From NCBI GenBank assembly GCA_947178125.1, contig CAMWXB010000007.1, forward strand, positions 1 to 64,000: DNA of 64,000 bases. Reading direction: 5' to 3'. Below, piece by piece: positions 7,141 through 54,041 of this stretch (its first letter is position 1; every line of letters begins with the position of its first letter). Under the pieces are notes generated by a model, which was not told the origin of the DNA, made no database searches, and was given only the letters and a program-made list of their open reading frames with translations. The position numbers and the translations under genes were made by a program. Source of the DNA: an uncultured Lachnospiraceae bacterium. GTDB lineage: Bacteria > Bacillota > Clostridia > Lachnospirales > Lachnospiraceae.

Positions 7141-7546
7141 TGCAGAAATCCGAGATATTAAAAACAATGTTCCGGATCGCTTTGTTTTTTACCGGAAAAC
7201 TTACATAGTCCACGACATAATGCCGGCGCATCCGGTCGTAAGTGTTGCTGTATGCGCCGCCAAGCAAAAGCGCAAGTCCGCTTTTTAAAAGCCGGCTTCC
7301 CCGAAAACTGAAAGTCACGAGAAAAAGAACGGTCATGGCCAGTGTCAATGCGATGGACAAAATTGCCACAAAGCCGCTCTTTTTTTCGCCCATATTCAAA
7401 AAAGCGCCTTTGTTGTGGTGCTTCCGAAGAAGCAGGCGTCCGCGTCCGATTTTTTTTGTTTCCCCTTCCGGGATTTTTTTCTCTATCAGATTCTTAATTC
7501 CCATATCCAGAAAGAAAATGCCGGCGGCAATCAGTGCATAGATCAT
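7088..7546 (-). CDS. lspA: Signal peptidase II-like membrane protein
   Basis: A 152-residue protein with four membrane spans. It keeps the LspA motifs: NKGAFLN (usual N.GAAFG), LLGGAYSNTYDR followed by VVDYVSF, and FNISDF, with the two catalytic aspartates (VVD and ISD) present. Lipoprotein signal peptidase cleaves at the lipobox Cys. The sequence is more divergent than a housekeeping LspA, so it may be a second, specialised copy. The start at 7546 has AGGAG ten bases upstream; a longer reading frame to 7651 would run through the ribosome site. Last gene of the reverse trio from 8511. Confidence 0.8.
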   Translation of the reverse strand: MIYALIAAGIFFLDMGIKNLIEKKIPEGETKKIGRGRLLLRKHHNKGAFLNMGEKKSGFVAILSIALTLAMTVLFLVTFSFRGSRLLKSGLALLLGGAYSNTYDRMRRHYVVDYVSFPVKNKAIRNIVFNISDFCIMIGALLMVLGSPLSTP

Positions 7547-7571
7547 AGAGGGTGCTCCTTTTTGGTAATTT

Positions 7572-8033
7572 TTATAAAAACTCCATATTGATTGACTTTT
7601 TGGTGAATCCATAATCCGTATACATTTTATAGGCAGCTTCATTTTTGGCATTTACCTGTAATTCAATTCCGTCATAACCCTTCTGAAGCTTTAATTCTTT
7701 AAGAAAGTCGAAGAAAGCATGCCCGATTCCTTTTCCACGATAATCCTTGTCAACTGCCATGGAGTCAACAAAAATAGTATTCCTTGTTACCAGATTAGAA
7801 GCTTCTGCATGACGGTATATAATAAATAAAATACCCGCGATAATTCCTTCATATTCTGCAACAAAAAAAGTTTTATCTTTGACCGCCTGCTCATAGACTT
7901 CCAAAGGCAGCACGGTTTCATTATATTTATATATATCCGGGCGCCAGTCAATGTGCATCTGCTGAACCTGTTTCATGATTGCTGATATTTGTTTATATTC
8001 GTCCAATCTCGAATTTCTAATGTAAATCTCCAT
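7572..8033 (-). CDS. GNAT family N-acetyltransferase
   Basis: A 153-residue acetyltransferase with the acetyl-CoA loop RGKGIGHAFFDF and the typical end AYKMYTDYGFTKKSINMEF. Substrate unknown. It lies 16 bp after the membrane protein gene and 25 bp before the LspA-like gene on the same strand, so the three probably share a transcript. Confidence 0.9.
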   Translation of the reverse strand: MEIYIRNSRLDEYKQISAIMKQVQQMHIDWRPDIYKYNETVLPLEVYEQAVKDKTFFVAEYEGIIAGILFIIYRHAEASNLVTRNTIFVDSMAVDKDYRGKGIGHAFFDFLKELKLQKGYDGIELQVNAKNEAAYKMYTDYGFTKKSINMEFL

Positions 8034-8049
8034 TATTTATAAATCTCCA

Positions 8050-8511
8050 TTATTGTTGTTCTTCCTCTGGCTTGTTGTGTTCACTCTTATTTGCCAAAGC
8101 GGCATGTCCGGTTTCCATTCCTATCCAGAAAGCAAAAAAATGTATGGCGAACACGATCCATAGAGGTCTGTCATTAAAATTTTCGATCAAAGAAGTTAAA
8201 TAAAAGTGATTCCATGTCACGGAGTCGCATATCCATGAAACGACAGGAAAGAGCATGACCGTTAAAAAGGAGCATAGAAGAGATATGGCGATTCGCTGGA
8301 GTATTTTGTCAAAGCTTCCTCTCCGCGATACGGCATCGCCGATCAGGTAAACGATAATAAACCAGGTCGGTACGATCACCAACAGCATTGGAAGAACCAG
8401 GAAAAGCAAGAGGGACATAACGGGTACAGCGAAAAAAAGGATACAGCCTGTTGCGAGCAGTCCCCAGTAAATCCCAAATGGCATTAGCGCTTTCATCATA
8501 GAACTCTCCAT
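8050..8511 (-). CDS. Four-span membrane protein, unknown function
   Basis: 153 residues from MESSMMKALMPFGIYW with four hydrophobic spans and a charged tail (SEHNKPEEEQQ). I do not recognise the family. The ATG at 8511 was chosen because GGAGCAGG lies just upstream and the first span follows immediately; a frame to 8595 would add 28 Cys/Arg-rich residues with no ribosome site. First gene of a reverse trio with GNAT and LspA-like genes. Confidence 0.65.
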   Translation of the reverse strand: MESSMMKALMPFGIYWGLLATGCILFFAVPVMSLLLFLVLPMLLVIVPTWFIIVYLIGDAVSRRGSFDKILQRIAISLLCSFLTVMLFPVVSWICDSVTWNHFYLTSLIENFNDRPLWIVFAIHFFAFWIGMETGHAALANKSEHNKPEEEQQ

Positions 8512-20526: not shown

Positions 20527-22119
20527 TTAACAATTCAGATTATCTGTAAATCTTTCAGGTTTATCGGAAAAACGATAGACCACGGTTATCTTATGGTCTT
20601 CATAGATTCTGATCTCATGGAGCATGGCGGTCACGGTTTCTCTGTCCAATTGTTCCACTTCACGATATTTTAACAGGTGTTGAATCCAGGGTATGGATAA
20701 TGTATCTGGCAGTTTTTGCGTATTTTCATGGGACTCCAGACTTACAAGCTGTTTGTTCAGAAGTTCTTCTTTGCGCGTATAGTCCTGCCTGTAAGCGGTA
20801 AATTCTTCTTCGGAAAGGAGTTCTTCCCGATAGTCTTCATAGACGCCTTTTTTCAGTCTCCGGATTCGGTTTCGTTCCGCAAGTATTCGTTTTTTTTCCT
20901 GTTCATATTCAGCTCCTGCAGTAGCGTTTTCAAAGGTCCGGGATGTTAAAATTTCTTCTGAAATGTCCATATGATGCAGAATCGCATTCAAATCTTCCAA
21001 CAGGATATTTTCCAGCGTCTGGTATGCTGTCTTATGCGGCGTACAGGCCTGACGGCCGGAACGTACATAGCTTCCGCAATAGTAACAGGTACCGGATGAA
21101 TTGTTTTTTTTGACAAGCGCCCGGCCGCAGTCTCCGCACTTTAAAAAGCCTGCCAGAACAGACGGACTGGAAGTCAGGTCAAGGCTCCTGGTCCGGCGGT
21201 TCAGCAGGTTCTGTGTTTTTTTCCAGGTACTTTCATCGATAATTGCGTCATGTGTTCCCGGCACGATGATCCAGTTTTCCGGCTGTCTTGCATGAGCTTT
21301 TCCTCTCATTTGCTGACTTTTCCGGCCCTGGACCATGTTGCCGAGATACATTTCGTTCTGCAGAATGCGGTGGACGGTCGAATAGCTCCAGTAGGAAATG
21401 CTGTCCGTATGATGGGCATTCCGGTAATGCTCGCCGTTTGCATTTTTATAGGCGGAAGGACAGAGGATGCCTTCTTCGTTTAAGATGCCTGCAATGCGGA
21501 GTTTGCCGCAGCCTGCATTGTAGAGGGCAAAAATTCTGCGTACGACGCCGGCGGCATATTCGTCGATGACCAGCCTGTTCTTATTAGAAGGAGACTTTCG
21601 ATAACCATAGGAAGGAAAAGCGCCAATAAATTCCCCGGCTTTCTGCTTGGTCAGAACGGAAGCGTGGATTTTCCGGGAAATATCCCGGGCGTACTGTTCG
21701 TTAAAAATATTTTTGATGGGCAGGAGCATGTCATAGGCCTGCGTAAAGCTGTCAATATTATCCGTAATGGAAATGAACCGGACATTCCGCTCCGGGAAAT
21801 ATCGTTCCAGATATCTTCCCGTGTCGATATAATCGCGTCCGAACCGGGACAGGTCTTTCACGATGACGCAGTTGACCTTTCCGGCTTCGATATCGCTTAT
21901 CATCCGCCGAAAAGCGGGACGTTCATAATTTGTCCCGGAAAAACCGTCATCAATGTAAATGTCGTATACGAGCAGGGTGTCCCGATCTTTTATGTAATCG
22001 GCAAGAAACTTTTTCTGATTGCTGATGCTGTTGCTTTCGGCCTTGTCACCGTCATCTCTGGATAATCTGATATATTCCGCTACATGGAAAAACATTTCTT
22101 TTCTCATAAAAACTTCCAT
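20527..22119 (-). CDS. Large serine recombinase
   Basis: About 530 residues from MEVFMRKEMFFHVAEYIRLS. The catalytic Ser is in YIRLSRDDGD (Ser20), with the resolvase motifs DDGFSGTNYERPAFRRM and DLSRFGRDYIDTGRYLE. A recombinase domain follows (GYRKSPSNKNRLVIDEYAAGVVRRIFALY, here described in parts), then a zinc ribbon (CGDCGRALV ... CYYCGSY) and a helical C-terminal tail. It resembles the TnpX/TndX group, which cut and join circular elements without a phage. It should excise and integrate the element at 19952-29161. The start is placed right after the stop of the small gene at 22121, one base apart, so the two are translationally coupled. Confidence 0.93.
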   Translation of the reverse strand: MEVFMRKEMFFHVAEYIRLSRDDGDKAESNSISNQKKFLADYIKDRDTLLVYDIYIDDGFSGTNYERPAFRRMISDIEAGKVNCVIVKDLSRFGRDYIDTGRYLERYFPERNVRFISITDNIDSFTQAYDMLLPIKNIFNEQYARDISRKIHASVLTKQKAGEFIGAFPSYGYRKSPSNKNRLVIDEYAAGVVRRIFALYNAGCGKLRIAGILNEEGILCPSAYKNANGEHYRNAHHTDSISYWSYSTVHRILQNEMYLGNMVQGRKSQQMRGKAHARQPENWIIVPGTHDAIIDESTWKKTQNLLNRRTRSLDLTSSPSVLAGFLKCGDCGRALVKKNNSSGTCYYCGSYVRSGRQACTPHKTAYQTLENILLEDLNAILHHMDISEEILTSRTFENATAGAEYEQEKKRILAERNRIRRLKKGVYEDYREELLSEEEFTAYRQDYTRKEELLNKQLVSLESHENTQKLPDTLSIPWIQHLLKYREVEQLDRETVTAMLHEIRIYEDHKITVVYRFSDKPERFTDNLNC

Positions 22120-22120
22120 T

Positions 22121-22303
22121 TTATTCAATCTGCGAATTTGAGGCGCGTTTTCCGGTTGCCGGCGTGGCTGCATGACCGGAAGCTGGAAAAAGGTGCAGCC
22201 GGATGATCTGCTCTATGAACTCATCCACCGTGATATCTCCCAGAAATTCCCTTTCAATCGTATAATCTGCATCATCTGCTGCTTTTTGTATGTTTTGCCG
22301 CAA
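22121..22303 (-). CDS. Small acidic protein coupled to recombinase
   Basis: A 60-residue protein (MRQNIQKAADDADYTIEREF then LGDITVDEFIEQIIRLHL) whose stop codon is one base from the recombinase start. It looks like a genuine small gene, helical and acidic in the middle, with a less conserved tail. Position suggests a directionality factor or a regulator of recombinase synthesis; no homolog is recognised, so this is inference. Confidence 0.6.
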   Translation of the reverse strand: MRQNIQKAADDADYTIEREFLGDITVDEFIEQIIRLHLFPASGHAATPATGKRASNSQIE

Positions 22304-22436: not shown

Positions 22437-22465
22437 TTGACAAACGATATATGTTAATATATTAT
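22437..22465 (+). promoter_or_regulatory. Promoter of the NAD module
   Basis: TTGACA at 22437, a 17-bp spacer and TATTAT at 22460, about 75 bp before the nicotinamidase start. The region just upstream is strongly A/T-rich. Confidence 0.75.
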
Positions 22466-22477
22466 TGTTAATAACAA
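22465..22477 (+). promoter_or_regulatory. Candidate operator (13-bp palindrome)
   Basis: TTGTTA A TAACAA is a perfect palindrome around a central A. It covers the end of the -10 box and the expected transcription start, the place for a repressor. The NrtR-like protein at 28424 is the candidate binder. Confidence 0.55.
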
Positions 22478-22537
22478 ATAAATAATAACAAAAAGAAAAT
22501 AAGAGATGGGAAGTATGAAACAGGAAAGGAGCAGATT

Positions 22538-23065
22538 ATGAACAGGAAAAAGGTATTAGTGGTAGTGGATATGCAGAAGGATTTTATTGACGGTGCGTTG
22601 GGAACGAAGGAGGCAGTTGGAATCGTCGAGAAAGCGGCAGCCGAAATTGCACAGTTTACGGGTAAGATTTTCGTGACAATGGATACTCATGAGAACAATT
22701 ATCTGGAGACGGCTGAGGGAAAGAAACTTCCGGTTCCGCATTGTATCAAAGGAACGGACGGATGGCTTTTGAATGAAAAGATACGGGCGGCATTAGCCGG
22801 GAAAGCGTATACGATAATTGAAAAGGGGACGTTTGGCTCCACGAAGTTAGCCGATGCGGTCCGTGAGATTGGAAATCAGGAGGAATTGGAAATCGAGTGC
22901 TTCGGTCTGTGTACTGACATATGTGTCGTTTCTAATGTGCTGCTGTTAAAGGCGAATTTCCCGGAAGCAAAGATTACGGTCAGGGCGGACTGCTGTGCAG
23001 GAGTAACGCCGGAAAGCCACGAGGCGGCGTTGAAAACAATGCGGATGTGCCAGATTGAAGTATGA
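22538..23065 (+). CDS. pncA: Nicotinamidase / isochorismatase-family hydrolase
   Basis: A 175-residue cysteine hydrolase of the PncA type. The catalytic triad is visible as Asp11 (VVVDMQKDF), Lys96 (IEKGTF) and Cys129 (LCTDICV); metal ligands Asp49, His51 and His68 (MDTHENN, PVPHC) fit nicotinamidases. It converts nicotinamide to nicotinic acid. AAAGGAG site six bases before the ATG. First gene of the NAD module. Other isochorismatase-like amidases share the fold, so the substrate is inferred from the metal site and neighbours. Confidence 0.88.
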   Translation: MNRKKVLVVVDMQKDFIDGALGTKEAVGIVEKAAAEIAQFTGKIFVTMDTHENNYLETAEGKKLPVPHCIKGTDGWLLNEKIRAALAGKAYTIIEKGTFGSTKLADAVREIGNQEELEIECFGLCTDICVVSNVLLLKANFPEAKITVRADCCAGVTPESHEAALKTMRMCQIEV

Positions 23066-23131: not shown

Positions 23132-23947
23132 ATGATCAGAATCAATAAAAATGACGTGAGTGTCAATAAATTTCCAGATGGAACACTTTTATTAAAAGAA
23201 CTGATTTCAGAGGATTGCGGTCAGGAGGAAAGGAAGCGGAAGGCGACGATCACATGGTTGTTTGAAAATAATGAAGAACTGGTGACGCTGATTTATCTTG
23301 CGGGGCATCTCCGGACGCACGGTGTGGCGGAATTGTCGCTCGATATGCCATATATCCCGAATGCACGCCAGGACCGTGTGAAAGCGGCGGAAGATGTTTT
23401 TACGCTGAAATACTTTGCGGAAGTGATCAACTGGCTGAACTTTGATTCCGTTATCGTTCTGGATCCGCATTCTTCCGTTAGTGAAGCATTAATTGATAAG
23501 ATTCTGGTGCGGACGCCGGAGCCTTTTATCCGAAAGGTTATCGACAAAATCGGCGGCGAAAAAGAACTGACGATGTTCTATCCCGATGAGGGGGCATGTA
23601 AGCGGTATTCCGGGATGTTCAGACTACCCTATGCCTTCGGAATCAAAAATCGGGACTGGGAGACGGGAGACATCAGAGGGCTGGATGTCTCCGGGATGGC
23701 GGACTGTATTCGGGACAGGAAGATTCTGATCGTAGACGATATTTCCAGCAGGGGCGGTACCTTTTATTTCAGCGCAAAGAAGCTGAAAGAGCTGGGGGCA
23801 AAAGAGATTTATCTGTATATTTCGCATTGTGAGAATACCATTCTGGAAGGCGATGTTTTGAAGAGCGGACTGATTGAGAGAGTTTTTACGACGAACAGCA
23901 TTTTTACGAAAAAAGATGAAAGGATAGAGGTGTTTGACTATGAATAA
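23132..23947 (+). CDS. prs: Ribose-phosphate pyrophosphokinase (short form)
   Basis: A 271-residue PRPP synthetase, shorter than the ~315-residue housekeeping enzyme. Visible motifs: NKFPDGTLLLKE near the start, PNARQDR, VLDPHSSVSEAL and the PRPP loop VDDISSRGGTF. It makes the PRPP that the nicotinamide phosphoribosyltransferase next door consumes. Such short Prs proteins are known beside nadV genes in phages. It overlaps the next gene by 8 bp, so the two are co-translated. AGGAGG site upstream. Confidence 0.9.
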   Translation: MIRINKNDVSVNKFPDGTLLLKELISEDCGQEERKRKATITWLFENNEELVTLIYLAGHLRTHGVAELSLDMPYIPNARQDRVKAAEDVFTLKYFAEVINWLNFDSVIVLDPHSSVSEALIDKILVRTPEPFIRKVIDKIGGEKELTMFYPDEGACKRYSGMFRLPYAFGIKNRDWETGDIRGLDVSGMADCIRDRKILIVDDISSRGGTFYFSAKKLKELGAKEIYLYISHCENTILEGDVLKSGLIERVFTTNSIFTKKDERIEVFDYE

Positions 23948-25409
23948 GACAAATCCAATGTTATTGATCGATTATTATAAAGCGGTGCACGCGGAAATGC
24001 TTCCCGAAAAGATGACGAAATCCGTTTCTTATTTTACGCCACGGATGAGCAGGATTGGGCGGTGGGATAAGGTGGTCATGTTCGGCCTGCAGGGATTTAT
24101 CAAAACATATCTGATTGATTATTTTAACAAAGAATTTTTTGAAAAACCCTTCGAGGAAGTTGTTGCGGAATATCAAAGAGTTCTGGATAATACGCTTGGA
24201 GCAGGTGTATACGGCATCGAAAAGATTAAGAAGCTTCACAAGTTGGGATATCTGCCGATAGAAATCGTCGCACTGCCTGAGGGGACGAGAGTTCCGGTCC
24301 ATGTGCCGATGTTCGGCATTACGAATACACATCCCGATTTCGCGTGGCTGCCGCAGGCGCTGGAGAGCCTGATTTCTGCGGAAAGCTGGCATCCCATGAT
24401 CGCAGCGACAGTGGGCTGTACTTATCGTGAGATTGTGAACCGGTATTATGATCTGACCTGCGATGACAGTCTTGAAAAAGCGAAAGCGCTCGGAGCGTTT
24501 GATTTCAGGGGGGAAGAATGCACGGAATCAGCCATCAAGGCAGGCGCAGGCTGGTGTCTTTCTTTTCTGAATACGGCGACAGTGCCGGTTGTTCCCTGGC
24601 TGGAACAGATGTATTGCTGTGACTGTACGAAGGAGCCAGTCGCGTATGGCAGCCCCAGTACGGAGCACGCGGTCATGTGCAGCAATTATGCGGTGGACGG
24701 CGACGAGATTACTTTTCTGCGGCGGCTGCTCACTGAAATCTATCCGAATATGAGTGTTTCGGTGGTGCTGGATTCTTACGATTATTGGAATGTGATTGAG
24801 AATATCCTGCCGCAGTTGAAAGAAGAGATTATGAACCACAACGGATGTATGCTGATGCGGGGCGACTCCGGCGACTGTGTGGAAGTCGTTACAAAGACTG
24901 TTTTCAAACTTTGGGAGGAATTCGGCGGAACAATGAACAGCAAAGGCTATAGAGTGCTGGTCCCTCATGTAAAGGCGATATACGGTGATTCCATTACTGT
25001 GCAGCGGTGCGAACAGATTTATCAGATTCTGGAAGAAAATGGTTTTGCCTGCTCCAACGTGGCGCTCGGCGTCGGTTCTTTTTCCTTCCAGTGCATCGAA
25101 GAAGACGGTGTTCTAAAACCCTTTACGAGAGATACGTTCAGTTCCTGCATCAAGGCGACATATTGCGAAATTGACGGGAAACCGTACCCGATCTTCAAAG
25201 ACCCGAAAGACGGCGGCTTCAAAAAGTCCCAAAAGGGCTGCTGTGTCGTATCGGAAGAAAATGGTGAACTGCGGTACAGGGATGAACTGAACTGGGAAGA
25301 GGCATCTTCCGGCAGCAATCTTTTACAGACGGTATTTAAAGACGGCGTTCTGCTCAGAGAACAATCGCTGCGGGAGATACGGGACAGGTTACACGCGGGT
25401 GCGTTTTAA
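23940..25409 (+). CDS. nadV: Nicotinamide phosphoribosyltransferase (NAMPT/NadV)
   Basis: A 489-residue protein with the NAMPT pattern: LLIDYYKAVHAEMLP, FGLQGFIKTYL, a STEHAVMC segment with the catalytic His (~241), SVSVVLDSYDYWNV, MRGDSGD (the RPDSG position), and GVGSFSF. It joins nicotinamide and PRPP to make NMN, bypassing nicotinic acid. The ATG at 23940 is preceded by GAGG; a TTG two codons upstream is less likely. The stop is followed at once by a long imperfect hairpin (25411-25633). Confidence 0.92.
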   Translation: MNKTNPMLLIDYYKAVHAEMLPEKMTKSVSYFTPRMSRIGRWDKVVMFGLQGFIKTYLIDYFNKEFFEKPFEEVVAEYQRVLDNTLGAGVYGIEKIKKLHKLGYLPIEIVALPEGTRVPVHVPMFGITNTHPDFAWLPQALESLISAESWHPMIAATVGCTYREIVNRYYDLTCDDSLEKAKALGAFDFRGEECTESAIKAGAGWCLSFLNTATVPVVPWLEQMYCCDCTKEPVAYGSPSTEHAVMCSNYAVDGDEITFLRRLLTEIYPNMSVSVVLDSYDYWNVIENILPQLKEEIMNHNGCMLMRGDSGDCVEVVTKTVFKLWEEFGGTMNSKGYRVLVPHVKAIYGDSITVQRCEQIYQILEENGFACSNVALGVGSFSFQCIEEDGVLKPFTRDTFSSCIKATYCEIDGKPYPIFKDPKDGGFKKSQKGCCVVSEENGELRYRDELNWEEASSGSNLLQTVFKDGVLLREQSLREIRDRLHAGAF

Positions 25410-25633: not shown

Positions 25634-25640
25634 TTGGAAG

Positions 25641-25663
25641 AAAGGAGCATGGTTATAGGGATG
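25641..25663 (+). repeat. Start-codon motif (family E) at nadE
   Basis: AAAGGAGC then ATGGTTATAGGGATG; the last ATG is taken as the nadE start, 13 bases after AAAGGAG. Confidence 0.6.
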
Positions 25664-26413
25664 AAAGAATTTCAGGCAATGGAAGTAAAAGAGAAATGTG
25701 TAACGTGGATCAGGGATTTTTTTGAAAAAAACGGAAAAGGCTGCAACTGCATCATCGGCATTTCGGGAGGAAAGGACAGTTCCGTCGCTGCGGCCTTATG
25801 CGTGGAAGCGCTCGGCAAAGACCGGGTCATCGGGGTTCTCATGCCGAACGGGGAACAAAGTGACATCGATGTGGCCAAAAAGCTGGTGGAATTTCTGGGA
25901 ATCACAGGCATTACCGTTAATATTGGACCGATTGTGCAGGCAGCTGCACAGGGCATACAACAGGCGCAGCAGGAGGGCTTGAGCAATCAGGCGGCAGTCA
26001 ATCTGCCCGCCCGCATCCGCATGGCGGTTCTGTACGCAGTATCGCAGTCAAAGAACGGCAGGGTGGCGAATACCTGCAATCTCTCTGAGGACTGGGTCGG
26101 TTATTCGACGCGTTATGGCGACAGTGTGGGAGATTTCAGTCCCCTTTCCGAGCTGACGGTTACGGAGGTGAAGCTACTGGGCAAAGCGGCCGGTCTGCCG
26201 GACGAATTTATCGAGAAGGTGCCGTCCGACGGCCTTTGTGGAAAAAGTGACGAGGAAAATCTTGGTTTTTCCTATAAAGTGCTGGACAGATATATCCGTA
26301 CCGGGGAAATAGAGGATGCCGGCGTCAGGGAAAAAATTGACAGGCTGCATGAAAAGAATCTGTTCAAGCTGCAGCTGATGCCGAAATTTACAGAGCTGGA
26401 AGTTCCGGTTTGA
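25661..26413 (+). CDS. nadE: NH3-dependent NAD synthetase (element-borne)
   Basis: A 250-residue NadE without a glutaminase domain. ATP-pyrophosphatase loop GISGGKDSS, then NLSEDWVGYSTRYGD, DFSPLSELT, and KVPSDGLCGKSDEENLGF, all canonical. It amidates nicotinic acid adenine dinucleotide to NAD. A second, glutamine-dependent NAD synthetase is at 52131 in the chromosome, so this is an extra copy brought by the element. The start follows the repeated leader motif; ATG 25649 and TTG 25634 in the same frame would add the leader residues and are less likely. Confidence 0.93.
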   Translation: MKEFQAMEVKEKCVTWIRDFFEKNGKGCNCIIGISGGKDSSVAAALCVEALGKDRVIGVLMPNGEQSDIDVAKKLVEFLGITGITVNIGPIVQAAAQGIQQAQQEGLSNQAAVNLPARIRMAVLYAVSQSKNGRVANTCNLSEDWVGYSTRYGDSVGDFSPLSELTVTEVKLLGKAAGLPDEFIEKVPSDGLCGKSDEENLGFSYKVLDRYIRTGEIEDAGVREKIDRLHEKNLFKLQLMPKFTELEVPV

Positions 26414-26441: not shown

Positions 26442-28346
26442 ATGATCACATTGCTGCCTGAGAAAAAAGGGACTTTTCTGCGCGCGTCCCTGTGCGATGT
26501 CTGTAATTTTTCCTGTGAATACTGCGCAAAGGATATGGGGATGGAAAATCATACGCCTAAGTGCGTCGAATCCGGTTTGCTGAGCGCGGAGGAATATAGC
26601 AGAAATCTGGAGAAAATTGCGGCCCACGGATTTGAAATCATTTCCTTTACGGGCGGCGAACCGCTGCTTTGTAAGGATTTTGCCAGTATTGCGCAGACGG
26701 CGAGACAACTGTTCCGGGTTGTGGAGATTACGACGAACGGCTCGAAACTGCCCGAACATATGGAAACAATCCGAAAATATGTGGATGTACTGAAGATATC
26801 AGTCGATGCGGTGGATGATGCTCTGCGGGTAAAAATTACCCGCCGGGATGATGCCAAGGATACCCTGCACATCATGGAAATGTGCTGTCGGGCCGGAATT
26901 GTGCAGATCGGTTTAAATTTTGTCTACATGAAGCAGAATGCGGAAGAACTGCCTAAATTGATTACATTTGTAAAAAGGCTGAATAGGAAGTATAATAGCA
27001 ATATATATATCAGCGTTCTGGATTTGTATTATTCCAAAGGAAACGATGCTTTCTGGCGGGAGCAGTTCGTCAATTTGAAAAAACTGCGGCAGATGTTAGC
27101 GGAAAAAGGAATTGCGGTCCATAGAAGGTCAAGAGTCGGATGTGATTCCTATTATTGCATCTGGGACGGCGTCAGGGTTAATATGAAAGACAGTATGTCC
27201 TGCACGCACAGGAGCGGGATATGCCTTGACTGTGAGGGATATTGTCAGGAGGGCATCTACAGCCTGAAACATTCCGCAAGCGGCTGGCTCAGTGTCTGTC
27301 CGTCGAACGATGTGAGGCTTGGCGCGCTGCTTCGTGGAGATGGCGCGGAACAAACGATCGACCATTTTGTGGAGATTTTGAATCAGATTAAGCGGGTTTC
27401 GAATACCGGGGCGGATTTTATGGAAAAGAACGGCTTGTGCCTGGAAAAGGATGATTCCGGCATGGAAAAGAACGGCTTGTGTCCGGAAAAGGATGATTCC
27501 GGCATGGGAAAAAATGGCTCGAGCGATGTGCCGCATCTAAAGAGGCCCAAGGTCAGAGAATGCCTTTTGCTTCGCAATGATATCAGGCGGCGGGCTCGGA
27601 ACTACTGTGAGAAACACGGATTTATGGAATTTGATACACCCGTGCTCACGAAGTACGCAGGAGAGCCATATAATCCGACATTTCCCGTTTCGTTAGAGAA
27701 AGAAACAGTGCGTCTTGCAGATTCTCCGCAGGTGTATAAAATGCTTCTGGTGCTTTCCGGTTATGACAGATATTATCAGTTTGCGCACTGTTTCCGGCCG
27801 ATTGCGCATGAGGGCGCTTTGGAGACGCATTTGCGGGAATTTATGCAGCTCGATTTGGAATTGCAGGTTGATTCTTTCGAGGAACTGATGGATACGGCAA
27901 AGGAGCTGCTTCACTGTTTATGCGAAGACGCGGTTTGGGAACTGGTTCCATACCTGCCGCTCGCCACCGGGAAAACAGGCGTTCACGGCCAAATCATGCC
28001 GGAGCATCATATCTTTGCAAAACCTGTAAATCTGCACATCGGACGGAATCAGGCCATGCCGGAGCCGGATGAGCTGCTTACGATCAAGACGGAATCTTTT
28101 GATATTCTTTTGAACGGCATGGAAGTGGGCGGCGGCGATATGCGTATCATGGATGCGGCGATGCAGGAATCGGTGATGGAACTTTTCGAGGTGGATAAGG
28201 AAGCGTACAGCGATTATCTGCGGGAACTCGGCCGTTACCGGGGAAAGCCCATCGGGGGTTTCGCAATCGGGATTGAGCGCCTTATCATGGCTATGACAGG
28301 CGTGTCAGATATCAGGGAGACGACGGCGTTCGATACATGGCAGTAG
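26442..28346 (+). CDS. Radical SAM / AspRS-like class II synthetase fusion
   Basis: A 634-residue two-domain protein. Residues ~10-230: radical SAM core with CxxxCxxC at Cys21, Cys25 and Cys28, and SFTGGEPLL; MoaA/SPASM-like. Residues ~230-290 are Cys-rich (CDSYYC, CTHRSGICLDCEGYC, SVCPSND), consistent with extra FeS clusters. Residues ~326-365: linker with a 14-residue repeat (MEKNGLCLEKDDSG) in two and a half copies. Residues ~365-634: class IIb synthetase core like AspRS, with DSPQVYKMLLVLSGYDRYYQ, motif 2 FRPIAHEGALETHLREF, NGMEVGGGDMRI and motif 3 GGFAIGIERLIMAMTG. The catalytic Args are kept; the anticodon-binding OB fold is absent, and FRDE is replaced by FRPI. So it probably makes an aminoacyl-adenylate for something other than normal tRNA charging. 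No known fusion of this type comes to mind. GAGTCAGGGGGGG precedes the start. Confidence 0.85.
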   Translation: MITLLPEKKGTFLRASLCDVCNFSCEYCAKDMGMENHTPKCVESGLLSAEEYSRNLEKIAAHGFEIISFTGGEPLLCKDFASIAQTARQLFRVVEITTNGSKLPEHMETIRKYVDVLKISVDAVDDALRVKITRRDDAKDTLHIMEMCCRAGIVQIGLNFVYMKQNAEELPKLITFVKRLNRKYNSNIYISVLDLYYSKGNDAFWREQFVNLKKLRQMLAEKGIAVHRRSRVGCDSYYCIWDGVRVNMKDSMSCTHRSGICLDCEGYCQEGIYSLKHSASGWLSVCPSNDVRLGALLRGDGAEQTIDHFVEILNQIKRVSNTGADFMEKNGLCLEKDDSGMEKNGLCPEKDDSGMGKNGSSDVPHLKRPKVRECLLLRNDIRRRARNYCEKHGFMEFDTPVLTKYAGEPYNPTFPVSLEKETVRLADSPQVYKMLLVLSGYDRYYQFAHCFRPIAHEGALETHLREFMQLDLELQVDSFEELMDTAKELLHCLCEDAVWELVPYLPLATGKTGVHGQIMPEHHIFAKPVNLHIGRNQAMPEPDELLTIKTESFDILLNGMEVGGGDMRIMDAAMQESVMELFEVDKEAYSDYLRELGRYRGKPIGGFAIGIERLIMAMTGVSDIRETTAFDTWQ

Positions 28347-28423: not shown

Positions 28424-29134
28424 ATGAGCGGAAAAGATAGAGAAGTGAACGAGGGGGAGAAGGCGTTTCTGGATCATTATCATCCGGAGAAATACGCGTC
28501 TATTTCCATCACGGTCGATGCAATTGTGTTCGGTGTGATGAAGGATACGACGGATAATTACCGGAAGCTGGACAGGCAGTCTTTGAAGATTCTGCTGGTA
28601 AAGCGGGAACGTTATCCTTATAAAGACTGTTACAGCCTGCCCGGTGGTTTTGTCGGGGAAAAGGAGACTTTCGAGGATACGCTCGGTCGGGTGCTGATGA
28701 AGAAAACGGGCCTTGCCGATATTTACAGCGAACAGCTCTATACCTTTGGCAGCGTGGAGCGCGACCCGCGGATGCGGATTGTCAGCTGCGCCTATATTTC
28801 GCTCGTCGATATCAACCAGACGAAAATCGAGGGAGCCGAATGGTTTGCTATAGAAGATATTCGCAGGATGGAGCTCGCATTCGATCATAACATGATTATT
28901 GAAGAAGCGCTCAAGCGCCTCAGGGGCAAGATCAATTATACGGATATCGTATTTCATATGATGCCGCAGGAATTTACCATCAGTGAACTGCAGGAAGTAT
29001 ACGAGATCATACTCGGGAAAAAGCTGCTTGCGGCGGCATTTCGGCGGACGATTTCCGAGAAACTTGAAGATACGGGGAAGATGACATCGAATGCGGGACA
29101 TCGGCCTTCCAGAATTTACCGGTACAAAAAATAG
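28424..29134 (+). CDS. NrtR-like Nudix / winged-helix regulator
   Basis: A 236-residue protein. Residues ~20-150 are a Nudix fold; the Nudix box (residues ~73-95, GGFVGEKETFEDTLG then RVLMKKTGL) has lost the REuxEE metal-binding glutamates (V, K, K instead), so hydrolysis is unlikely. Residues ~160-236 form a winged helix (FTISELQEVYEIILGKKL, AAFRRTISEKL, HRPSRIYRYKK) as in NrtR. NrtR family proteins repress NAD-synthesis genes and let go when ADP-ribose binds. Here it is the last gene of the NAD module, 21 bp from the element end. AGGAGG-like GGAGG site. Confidence 0.88.
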   Translation: MSGKDREVNEGEKAFLDHYHPEKYASISITVDAIVFGVMKDTTDNYRKLDRQSLKILLVKRERYPYKDCYSLPGGFVGEKETFEDTLGRVLMKKTGLADIYSEQLYTFGSVERDPRMRIVSCAYISLVDINQTKIEGAEWFAIEDIRRMELAFDHNMIIEEALKRLRGKINYTDIVFHMMPQEFTISELQEVYEIILGKKLLAAAFRRTISEKLEDTGKMTSNAGHRPSRIYRYKK

Positions 29135-52100: not shown

Positions 52101-52133
52101 GCAGGCTGAGAAAGGAGAATGGTCATTAAAATG
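52101..52133 (+). repeat. Start-codon motif (family E) at chromosomal nadE
   Basis: GCAGGCTGAGAAAGGAG then AATGGTCATTAAAATG, ending on the start codon. Confidence 0.75.
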
Positions 52134-54041
52134 AAGCATGGTTTTGTGAAAGTTGCGGCGGTGACGCCCGAAATAAAGGTAGCAGACCCGGTCTATAATG
52201 CACAGCAGATTTGCGCCCGCATGGAAGAGGCGGCGGAAAAAGGCGCGAAGATCATTGTTTTCCCGGAGTTGTGCCTGACGGGTTATACATGCGGCGATCT
52301 GTTTTTGCAGGAATTGCTTTTGAAAGAGGCAAAAGAGCAGCTGCGGGTGATCGCCGATGCGTCGGAGGGCAGCGATGCGCTCGTTTTTATCGGGCTGCCG
52401 GTGGAAAAGGCGCATAAACTCTATAATGTAGCGGCTGTTATTCATGATGGTAAGGTTCTGGCGATGATTCCGAAGCGTTTTATTCCCGCTTATGCGGAAT
52501 TTTATGAGACGAGGCATTTTACGCCGGGAAATCAGGAACCGGAAACGTATCTGCTGGAGGAGGAAGAGATACCGTTCGGAACGGACATTTTGTTTCAGGC
52601 GGACTCCATGCGGGAACTCGTCGTTGGCTGTGAGATCTGTGAGGATATCTGGGTACCGGATTCACCCGGCCTTTCCCATGCGATGGCGGGGGCGAGCGTA
52701 CTCGTCAATCTGTCCGCATCCAATGAGACGGTGGGAAAAGACAGTTACCGGGAAATGCTTGTCAAGTCGGCCAGCGCACGGTTCATAGCGGGGTATGTTT
52801 ATGCTTCCGCCGGTGAGGGAGAGTCCACGCAGGACCTTGTTTTCGGCGGACACAACATGATTGCCGAGAATGGAACGATATTATCGCAGTCGAAGCGTTT
52901 CAGCGCGCAGACGGTCTATGCGGATCTGGATATTCACAGGCTGAACCACGAGAGGCGCAGAATGTCAAGCTATCAGCTGGGACACAGAGAAAAATACCAG
53001 ATGATATCTTTTCATATGGAAGAGGAGGATACAGAACTCGAACGCGTTTATCATGCGGCGCCTTTCGTTCCTTCCGAAAAAGAAGAACGGGAGAAGCGTT
53101 GTGAGGAGATTTTATCGATTCAGTCTTATGGATTAAAGAAGCGGTACGAGCATACGGGTGCAAAAACGGCGGTCATCGGTGTTTCCGGCGGGCTGGATTC
53201 CACGCTGGCACTGCTCGTGACGGTACGCGCTTTTGATATGCTGGGGCTTTCCAGGGATAAGATCGTTGCGGTCACGTTGCCCTGCTTTGGAACGACGGAC
53301 AGGACTTATAATAACGCTTGTGATTTAACAAAGATGCTCGGCGCCACGTTAAAGGAAGTCGATATTAAAGAAGCGGTGACAGTTCATTTCCGGGATATCG
53401 GACAGGAAAGCGACAATCACGATGTTACCTATGAAAACGGACAGGCGAGGGAGCGTACGCAGGTACTGATGGATATCGCCAATCAGGCGAACGGCATGGT
53501 CATCGGTACCGGCGATATGTCGGAGCTCGCACTCGGATGGGCGACCTACAACGGCGACCACATGTCCATGTATGGCGTGAACAGCGGCGTGCCGAAAACG
53601 CTGGTGCGCCATCTCGTAAAATATTATGCGGATACCTGTCAGGACGAGGAACTTTCAAAGGTTCTGCTGGACATACTTGACACACCTGTCAGTCCGGAAC
53701 TCCTGCCGCCTTCCGGCGATGCGATATCCCAGAAAACGGAAGACCTGGTCGGCCCCTATGAGCTGCATGACTTTTTCCTCTATTATATGCTGCGGTGTGG
53801 GTTCGAACCGGCCAAAATCTATCGGATTGCGAAGGTTTCTTTTGCCGGCAGGTATACGGATGAGATCATTCTAAAGTGGTTAAAGACTTTTTACCGCAGA
53901 TTCTTTGCGCAGCAATTCAAACGCTCCTGTCTGCCCGACGGCCCCAAAGTCGGCAGTGTCGCACTCTCTCCCAGAGGAGATCTGCGTATGCCCTCGGATG
54001 CCGCCGCTGCGATATGGCTCAGGCAGCTTCAGGAACTTTAA
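52131..54041 (+). CDS. nadE: Glutamine-dependent NAD synthetase
   Basis: A 636-residue enzyme. The N-terminal glutaminase (nitrilase fold) has Glu in VFPELCLTGY, Lys in IPKRFIPAYAEF and Cys in VGCEICEDIW; the C-terminal synthetase has GVSGGLDST, GTGDMSELALGWATYNGD and a late LLPPSGDAISQKTEDL. It amidates NaAD using glutamine. It is the host's own copy, distinct from the one in the mobile element (25661). Start placed after the leader motif; 52119 would add MVIK. It nearly touches the convergent gene at 54043. Confidence 0.93.
   Translation: MKHGFVKVAAVTPEIKVADPVYNAQQICARMEEAAEKGAKIIVFPELCLTGYTCGDLFLQELLLKEAKEQLRVIADASEGSDALVFIGLPVEKAHKLYNVAAVIHDGKVLAMIPKRFIPAYAEFYETRHFTPGNQEPETYLLEEEEIPFGTDILFQADSMRELVVGCEICEDIWVPDSPGLSHAMAGASVLVNLSASNETVGKDSYREMLVKSASARFIAGYVYASAGEGESTQDLVFGGHNMIAENGTILSQSKRFSAQTVYADLDIHRLNHERRRMSSYQLGHREKYQMISFHMEEEDTELERVYHAAPFVPSEKEEREKRCEEILSIQSYGLKKRYEHTGAKTAVIGVSGGLDSTLALLVTVRAFDMLGLSRDKIVAVTLPCFGTTDRTYNNACDLTKMLGATLKEVDIKEAVTVHFRDIGQESDNHDVTYENGQARERTQVLMDIANQANGMVIGTGDMSELALGWATYNGDHMSMYGVNSGVPKTLVRHLVKYYADTCQDEELSKVLLDILDTPVSPELLPPSGDAISQKTEDLVGPYELHDFFLYYMLRCGFEPAKIYRIAKVSFAGRYTDEIILKWLKTFYRRFFAQQFKRSCLPDGPKVGSVALSPRGDLRMPSDAAAAIWLRQLQEL

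What the first reader, a model, noticed from the sequence alone, without database searches (positions are those of the whole stretch)
26442..28346. Radical SAM domain fused to an AspRS-like catalytic core
One protein carries a complete radical SAM site (Cys21/25/28), a Cys-rich region for extra clusters and a class IIb synthetase core with its motif 2 and 3 arginines but no anticodon-binding domain. A parallel is EpmA (synthetase-like) working with EpmB (radical SAM) on EF-P, though these domains are of other subtypes. Here an amino acid or nucleotide may be activated as adenylate and modified by radical chemistry, with NAD precursors or PRPP products from neighbouring enzymes as the partner. 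I know of no described enzyme with this layout, so this is the best candidate for a new pathway in the window.
Basis: partly seen in the sequence, partly recalled or inferred. Interest (0 to 1): 0.9.

Follow-up and report, generated by a model that had tools for sequence, protein, structure and literature searches.

The report
NAD-linked radical-SAM/aspartate-activating enzyme pair
A bacterium of a gut-associated family carries a protein that joins a radical-chemistry enzyme to a tRNA-free relative of the enzyme that activates aspartate; related bacteria make the two as neighbouring genes, and both forms sit behind what looks like the same DNA switch as genes that rebuild the coenzyme NAD, which suggests an undescribed step of NAD-related metabolism.

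Summary
The fusion is real. Window 26442-28346 encodes a MoaA-like radical SAM half (Cys21/25/28, extra Cys261/264/268/286) and a class IIb AspRS-like core without anticodon domain. Two other genomes of the genus have the same fusion; two further genomes have the halves as overlapping neighbour genes, and the tree makes split ancestral and fusion derived. So the unit is a functional pair, not a joining error. Both halves are under purifying selection (dN/dS 0.07-0.16). The aspartate/ATP pocket is largely kept; most of the MoaA arginines checked are lost. The fusion sits inside a NARP1-like (Adps-Namat) NAD operon with an NrtR repressor; five related genomes have that operon without it. A promoter motif learned only from eight NARP1 operons has its best match, in about 20 kb of each split locus, within about 100 bp before the pair, although no Namat was found in either genome. 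I read it as an ADPR/NAD-responsive enzyme pair: the AspRS-like part makes aspartyl-AMP and passes aspartate to a non-tRNA acceptor, and the radical SAM part modifies acceptor or product, probably a nucleotide of the NAD pool. NrtR binding, acceptor and chemistry are inferred. My literature searches found no description of it.

The parts
26442..28346 (+). Fused radical SAM / AspRS-like protein, 634 aa
   Evidence: same fusion in G647 and G671/L016
26442..27446 (+). MoaA-like radical SAM half (residues 1-335)
26502..26525 (+). CxxxCxxC radical SAM cluster motif (C21, C25, C28)
   Evidence: invariant in the 5-member family alignment
27222..27299 (+). C-terminal Cys motif C261-x2-C264-x3-C268(QEGIY)-x17-C286, probably an auxiliary Fe-S cluster
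   Evidence: invariant; C261/C264/C286 align with C257/C260/C274 of E. coli MoaA (cluster ligands, recalled), C268 is extra
27420..27519 (+). Linker with 42-bp tandem repeat, in frame, only in the window copy of the three fused copies
27531..28343 (+). AspRS-like class IIb catalytic core (residues 364-634), no anticodon-binding and no GAD insertion domain
27759..27854 (+). Motif 2 region (residues 440-471): R452, Q469, D471, loop insertion
   Evidence: mapped to E. coli AspRS R217, Q231, D233
28254..28289 (+). Motif 3 (GGFAIGIERLIM), R613
   Evidence: mapped to E. coli AspRS R537
22437..22495 (+). Operon promoter (TTGACA 22437-22442, 17 bp, TATTAT 22460-22465) and putative NrtR operator (22466-22495)
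   Evidence: binding not shown
22538..23065 (+). Isochorismatase-family hydrolase, possible nicotinamidase
   Evidence: PF00857 E 2.5e-21; nicotinamidase model PRK11609 only 27 bits, cut-off 174; context gene
23132..23947 (+). Divergent PRPP-synthetase homologue, Adps-like by position only
   Evidence: TIGR01251 94 bits, below its cut-off of 113; PDB matches are PRPP synthetases, best 57 bits
23934..25409 (+). Namat-like nicotinamide/nicotinate ADP-ribose transferase homologue
   Evidence: best PDB hits 9w5w/9w5x (phage Namat), 391 bits; 9ke8 307; the other listed chains at most 170. NCBIfam names it nicotinate phosphoribosyltransferase (PRK09198, 438 bits, cut-off 405)
25634..26413 (+). Ammonia-type NAD synthase NadE
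   Evidence: TIGR00552 181 bits, cut-off 64
28424..29134 (+). NrtR-type Nudix/winged-helix repressor
   Evidence: PF21906 67 bits, cut-off 27; NF050029 166 bits, under its cut-off of 400

Best explanation
It is an accessory two-enzyme unit of the NAD/ADP-ribose regulon. When NAD+ is broken down and ADP-ribose accumulates, NrtR releases the promoter and the pair is made. The AspRS-like part binds L-aspartate and ATP, makes aspartyl-AMP through the alpha-carboxyl, and transfers the aspartyl group to an acceptor that is not a coded tRNA. The MoaA-like radical SAM part cleaves SAM and uses the 5'-deoxyadenosyl radical on that acceptor or on the aspartylated product; its C-terminal cluster holds the substrate or takes up an electron. 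The likeliest acceptor is a nucleotide of the NAD pool (ADPR, NAD, NaAD, NMN). Shown by computation: the pair, its conservation, purifying selection, the Asp-AMP-type pocket, the lost MoaA arginines, and the shared promoter element. Inferred: that NrtR binds that element, that adenylate forms, the acceptor, and the radical reaction.
For: Domains and closest profiles. Fused or adjacent in the five genomes found to have the AspRS-like half (G000, G647, G671=L016, G099, G686=L017). dN/dS 0.07-0.10 (radical SAM) and 0.11-0.16 (AspRS-like) among three fused copies. Of 33 E. coli AspRS positions printed, 20 keep their residue, among them E171, S193, Q195, K198, R217, Q231, D233, H448, H449, D475, E482, R489, R537, which I recall as Asp/ATP contacts. 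Of the MoaA arginines checked, R17 is kept, R68, R189, R262, R264 are replaced, and the C-terminal GG is absent. Operon and NrtR context. A matrix from 8 NARP1-operon promoters has its best hit in 19.9 kb of the G099 locus (21.2; next non-overlapping 12.6) 101 bp before the radical SAM gene, and in 21.0 kb of the L017 locus (17.2; next 9.3) 17 bp before it; 0 of 300 resampled sequences reach either. Exact pattern in 10 genomes: 12 hits, 6 before NARP1 operons and 2 before the pair.
Against: No acceptor is shown by any result. The operator was first seen by eye, the matrix was laid out after that, and its training promoters come from one genus; the pattern was written so as to fit the two pair promoters, so those two hits are by construction. 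Nobody has shown NrtR to bind it. Five genomes have the NARP1 operon and NrtR without the pair, so the pair is not needed for NAD synthesis. G686 has no NrtR beside the pair, only a homologue elsewhere with stretches 38-50% identical. 13 of the 33 AspRS positions are changed, mostly in the flipping and motif 2 loops; E219 is kept in one alignment and not in the other. The fused lineage lost about 33 residues of the core that split copies keep. The AspRS-like half modelled poorly (pLDDT 54.8). Only five genomes are known to have the pair.
Confidence: 0.45

Rival explanations
1. EpmA/EpmB-like protein or RNA modification: the AspRS-like part attaches aspartate (or a radical-modified aspartate) to a protein side chain or to a modified nucleoside in RNA, and the radical SAM part modifies it, as a response to NAD stress.
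Against: The profile is far closer to AspRS (145 bits) than to EpmA (50 bits); the radical SAM half is MoaA-like and not of the aminomutase type (EpmB type recalled); I saw no candidate target among the listed ORFs of the neighbourhoods, without a dedicated search.
Confidence: 0.2
2. The pair makes an antiviral or toxic aspartyl-nucleotide, in the manner of viperin (modified nucleotide) or microcin C (aspartyl-AMP mimic), induced when NAD-depleting defence raises ADP-ribose.
Against: The MoaA profile is better (111 against 82 bits); pVip matches are to be expected for a MoaA-like protein; the C-terminal Cys motif is not a viperin feature (recalled). No export or immunity gene caught my eye nearby, but none was searched for.
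Confidence: 0.15
3. The AspRS-like part is an ammonia-dependent aspartate amide or asparagine synthetase (AsnA-like), and the radical SAM part is an unrelated partner.
For: Core-only aspartate-activating class IIb paralogues with this activity exist (AsnA and the archaeal enzyme, PMC3532385, passages).
Against: The asparagine synthetase model PRK06462.1-4 scores only 47 bits against 145 for AspRS; AsnA activates the beta-carboxyl (PMC3532385) while this pocket keeps the AspRS pattern; it does not explain the partner or the promoter.
Confidence: 0.1
4. A relic: the fusion is an accidental joining of two genes on the way to loss.
For: Linker repeat in the window copy; about 33 residues of the core lost in the fused clade; patchy occurrence.
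Against: dN/dS 0.07-0.16 in both halves; fusion kept in three genomes; pocket residues kept.
Confidence: 0.05

Closest known systems
MoaA, GTP 3',8-cyclase
   Different: R68, R189, R262, R264 replaced, C-terminal GG absent, extra C268 and a CQEGIYS insertion; separate clade in the tree
Aspartyl-tRNA synthetase (class IIb)
   Same: Catalytic core and most of the Asp/ATP pocket
   Different: No anticodon-binding domain, no GAD domain, altered motif 2 and flipping loops; separate long-branched clade
EpmA + EpmB (EF-P modification)
   Same: Core-only synthetase paralogue working with a radical SAM enzyme (recalled)
   Different: Both partners of other subtypes; no EF-P link seen
AsnA / archaeal asparagine synthetase
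   Same: Aspartate-activating class IIb core without anticodon domain
   Different: Low profile score (47 bits); AspRS-type pocket; radical SAM partner
NARP1 (Adps-Namat) NAD reconstitution operons
   Same: The window's host operon looks to be of this kind
   Different: No radical SAM part is mentioned in the NARP1 paper seen: 'radical SAM' occurs 0 times in PMC12774641
Prokaryotic viperin
   Same: MoaA-like radical SAM core; profile match under the curated cut-off
   Different: C-terminal Cys motif here; lower score than MoaA

Membership tests
Radical SAM superfamily | CxxxCxxC motif in a radical SAM barrel | tested here: met
   C21/C25/C28 invariant; PF04055 84.6 bits, cut-off 29.5
MoaA (GTP 3',8-cyclase) | Curated whole-protein score of MoaA models | tested here: not met
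   TIGR02666 111 bits, cut-off 284
MoaA (GTP 3',8-cyclase) | GTP-binding arginines and C-terminal Gly-Gly | tested here: not met
   R17 kept; R68 to S, R189 to S, R262 to S, R264 to K; GG absent (roles recalled)
Aspartyl-tRNA synthetase | Motif 2 and 3 arginines and aspartate pocket | tested here: met
   (E219 depends on the alignment)
Aspartyl-tRNA synthetase | Anticodon-binding (OB) domain | tested here: not met
   The radical SAM half or nothing stands before the core; TIGR00459 143 bits, cut-off 374
Aspartyl-tRNA synthetase | Charges tRNA-Asp | not testable with these tools
   The genome has two other full-length AspRS, 744 and 714 bits, cut-off 443
Asparagine synthetase A type | Family score | tested here: not met
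   PRK06462.1-4 47 bits, cut-off 309
EpmA | Family score | tested here: not met
   TIGR00462 50 bits, cut-off 287
Prokaryotic viperin | Curated score | tested here: not met
   NF038283 82 bits, cut-off 180
NARP1 (host operon) | Namat closer to phage Namat than to Nampt | tested here: met
   391 bits to 9w5w/9w5x; 307 to 9ke8, deposited as Nampt, origin not checked; at most 170 to the other listed chains. By score only, no tree. NCBIfam names it nicotinate phosphoribosyltransferase
NARP1 (host operon) | Adjacent gene is Adps and not an ordinary PRPP synthetase | tested here: inconclusive
   A divergent PRPP-synthetase homologue is directly upstream; no Adps reference was compared
NARP1 (host operon) | Uses ADPR-PP to make NAD+ | not testable with these tools
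   Clamp R40 and F392 equivalents kept, Y396 to Cys, Asp215 to Ala
NrtR regulon | NrtR-bound operator before the operon | tested here: inconclusive
   Shared element found; binding not shown

The most novel reading that the evidence does not exclude
A new branch of pyridine or adenine nucleotide metabolism: an aspartyl ligase and a MoaA-like radical SAM enzyme together build an aspartate-derived nucleotide (aspartylated ADPR or NAD, or even an aspartate-based route to a pyridine nucleotide in bacteria without NadA), switched on by ADP-ribose when NAD+ is depleted.
Probability: 0.25. Interest if true: 0.9.

Novelty: new variant of a known kind. Interest (0 to 1): 0.7.

Why it matters
It would be, as far as my searches show, the first pairing of a MoaA-like radical SAM enzyme with an aspartate-activating synthetase core, and a new output of the ADP-ribose/NAD stress response. 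The pair is small, occurs in two arrangements and in three genomic settings, so its reaction can be tested directly with purified proteins. If the acceptor is an NAD-pool nucleotide, there is a metabolite or cofactor to be found; if it is protein or RNA, a new modification.

Tried and rejected
Assembly or frameshift artefact: rejected, same fusion in two other assemblies (G647; G671, whose contig has the same length of 4,411 bases as L016) and low dN/dS. Simple MoaA: rejected on residues and score. Housekeeping AspRS: rejected, two full-length ones are elsewhere in the genome. Viperin: match under the curated cut-off only.

Viral or mobile origin: and one search found no relative in viral contigs; one search gave 34 loci with 22-33% identity over short N-terminal stretches, none with the CQEG motif, otherwise not identified; one search was a scan for ordinary AspRS rows (2 loci). 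Phages: 38 records, 20 listed, none covering 80% of the query; plasmids: 187 records, 8 listed, none covering 80%. Not followed further.

Distant radical SAM relatives in G379 and in a Micrarchaeota MAG (L022) share the CQEG motif but show no synthetase partner in the stretch read. In some searches only the best 4-5 candidates per genome were scored, so misses are possible. De novo NAD by NadA: absent in 14 of 14 genomes searched, control rings in 12 of 14; this neither supports nor excludes an aspartate-based route. The AspRS-like structure model is poor, so I draw no pocket geometry from it; its structural matches only agree with the sequence result. The radical SAM model was built on an alignment in which 16 of 19 rows are distant, mostly MoaA-like, sequences, which favours a MoaA-like model.

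Literature: searches found no paper on a radical SAM/AspRS pairing. One search listed one review on cyclic dipeptides and two NrtR/NiaR papers without the term radical SAM; of these I read passages of PMC12735969 only. One search (AspRS residues) found nothing, so the roles of AspRS residues are recalled. The library lacks most subscription papers. Papers seen, passages only: PMC12774641, PMC12735969, PMC3532385.

Full report
OBSERVATION. Window 26442-28346 is one open frame of 634 residues. Pfam gives Radical_SAM (PF04055, E 1.1e-23) in the N-terminal half and tRNA-synt_2 (class II D, K, N; E 3.2e-47) in the C-terminal half. NCBIfam puts the halves closest to MoaA (111 bits) and AspRS (145 bits), both far under the curated cut-offs of 284 and 443.

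HOMOLOGUES. Counts of genomes with the radical SAM half, own genome included: 2 of 299 of the family (whole protein as query), 3 of 392 of the order (the third, G379, is a distant radical SAM only), 1 of 398 of the phylum (alignment query) and 4 of 77 of the genus. In one search, 8 of 77 genomes matched at E 1e-20, but four of these (G695, G696, G700, G704) matched only over the synthetase region, in frames of 599-617 aa, as ordinary AspRS would. In some searches only the best 4-5 candidates of each genome were scored. So five distinct genomes are known to carry the pair: G000 (window), G647, G671=L016, G099 and G686=L017. The first three are fused. In G099 and G686 the two halves are separate genes that overlap. 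In a tree with AspRS, AsnRS, LysRS, EpmA and AsnA the AspRS-like proteins form one clade (100); the fused ones form a clade inside it (100), with G099 next (79) and L017 outermost: the split state is ancestral and fusion is derived, if the root is where these paralogues put it. The radical SAM tree also keeps the fused copies apart from the split ones but groups the two split ones (66). Identities to the window: fused copies 86-87% (radical SAM) and 77-78% (AspRS-like); split copies about 60% and, by method, 41-54%.

SELECTION. Nei-Gojobori dN/dS among the three fused copies is 0.07-0.10 for the radical SAM half and 0.11-0.16 for the AspRS-like half, against 0.04-0.08 for four neighbouring operon genes between window and G647. 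dS is near 1 in several pairs, so the values are approximate; both halves are nonetheless clearly constrained.

CONTEXT. The window operon is isochorismatase - PRPP-synthetase homologue - Nampt homologue - NadE - fusion - NrtR. The Nampt homologue matches the solved phage Namat (9W5W/9W5X, identified by accession in PMC12774641) with 391 bits, 9ke8 (deposited as Nampt, origin not checked) with 307, and the other listed chains with at most 170. NCBIfam names it nicotinate phosphoribosyltransferase (438 bits, cut-off 405). I take the operon as NARP1-like, that is, making NAD+ from ADP-ribose; whether its PRPP-synthetase homologue is an Adps was not tested. Of 77 genus genomes, 8 have this Namat homologue. 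In three (G000, G647, G671) the fusion lies in the operon between NadE and NrtR; in G671 the operon is split over two contigs. In five (G642, G676, G638, G677, G689) the same gene order is present without the fusion (none of them matched). G099 has the pair directly followed by NrtR; G686 has the pair alone; no Namat was found in either (the same query rang in 8 genomes). The pair is therefore an optional addition, not a step of NARP1.

REGULATION. The eight NARP1 operons start with a TTGACA promoter followed by a conserved AT-rich dyad. I saw a similar dyad by eye before the pair in G099 and G686 and then tested it. A weight matrix trained on the eight NARP1 promoters only has its highest score in the 19.9-kb G099 locus (21.2; next non-overlapping hit 12.6) 101 bp before the radical SAM gene and in the 21.0-kb L017 locus (17.2; next 9.3) 17 bp before it; of 300 first-order resamplings of each upstream region none reached these scores. 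In three other stretches (16 kb of the own genome, L022, L015) the best scores were 6.0, 11.6 and 7.7. The exact pattern TAWTAWCNNNNNRATAATAA in ten genomes gave 12 hits: 6 before NARP1 operons, 2 before the pair (G099, G686), 3 inside other reading frames (G099 C13, G000 C55, G000 C82) and 1 unassigned (G638 C26); the reversed control pattern gave 6 hits; G671 and G642 had no exact hit. The pattern was written to fit the window, G099 and L017 sites, so what it shows is only that such sites are rare elsewhere. In S. sobrinus NrtR binding is released by ADPR (PMC12735969, passages), and NF050029 (166 bits, under its cut-off of 400) names its family ADPR-responsive. G686 has no NrtR beside the pair but a homologue elsewhere (38-50% identical stretches). 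I take this as good but untested evidence that the pair belongs to the ADPR/NAD regulon.

MECHANISM. Likely sequence of events: ADPR rises, NrtR releases, the pair is made; the AspRS-like part makes aspartyl-AMP; the aspartyl group goes to a non-tRNA acceptor; the radical SAM part acts on acceptor or product. My chances per step, as judgement: regulon membership about 0.75; Asp-AMP formation about 0.75; working on one pathway about 0.85; NAD-pool nucleotide as acceptor about 0.35. A purely structural idea, untested: the adenosine of ADPR or NAD offers the same 2',3'-diol as the tRNA terminal adenosine, so a core freed from tRNA could aspartylate it.

NOVELTY. Searches of the open literature for radical SAM with AspRS or AspRS-like terms and with nicotinamide or NrtR terms found no description. 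Each half belongs to a known superfamily; a core-only synthetase with a radical SAM partner has one parallel that I know (EpmA/EpmB, recalled). I call it a new variant of a known kind, with a real chance that the reaction is new.

Noticed in passing
23934-25409 with 22538-23065 and 25634-26413: The Namat-like protein has Ala where phage Namat has Asp215, which hydrogen-bonds nicotinamide (PMC12774641, passage); the same NTATVP sequence is in 8 of 8 homologues. With an isochorismatase-family (possible nicotinamidase) gene and NadE in the operon this suggests a deamidated NARP1: NAM to NA, NA + ADPR-PP to NaAD, NadE to NAD.
   Followed up: partly
20527-22173 (-): A large serine recombinase lies divergently upstream of the operon in G000, G647 and G671 (79-81% identical), but was not found in the stretches read around the five fusion-free operons.
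   Followed up: partly
27420-27519: In-frame 42-bp tandem repeat in the linker, absent from the other two fused copies.
   Followed up: yes
52110-54038: A second NAD synthase, of the long type (NF002730, 890 bits, cut-off 473), so the operon NadE is an extra one.
   Followed up: partly
G000 C4:35908 and C7:96603 (L002, L003): Two different full-length AspRS genes in the same genome (714 and 744 bits, cut-off 443).
   Followed up: partly
L015 (G379:C52) 7374-8351: A distant radical SAM relative with the same CQEG Cys motif sits among NDK-like (26 bits, just under its cut-off of 27), pyruvate-kinase-like, SHMT-like (my reading; Pfam gave only a weak DUF7821 match), DegT aminotransferase and glycosyltransferase-like (my reading) genes.
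   Followed up: partly
G000 and 13 related genomes: NadA (quinolinate synthase) was not found in 14 of 14 genomes; the control genomes ring in 12 of 14.
   Followed up: no
L017 11909-12454: A 181-residue protein without a Pfam match follows the split pair directly, then a DUF1848 protein.
   Followed up: no
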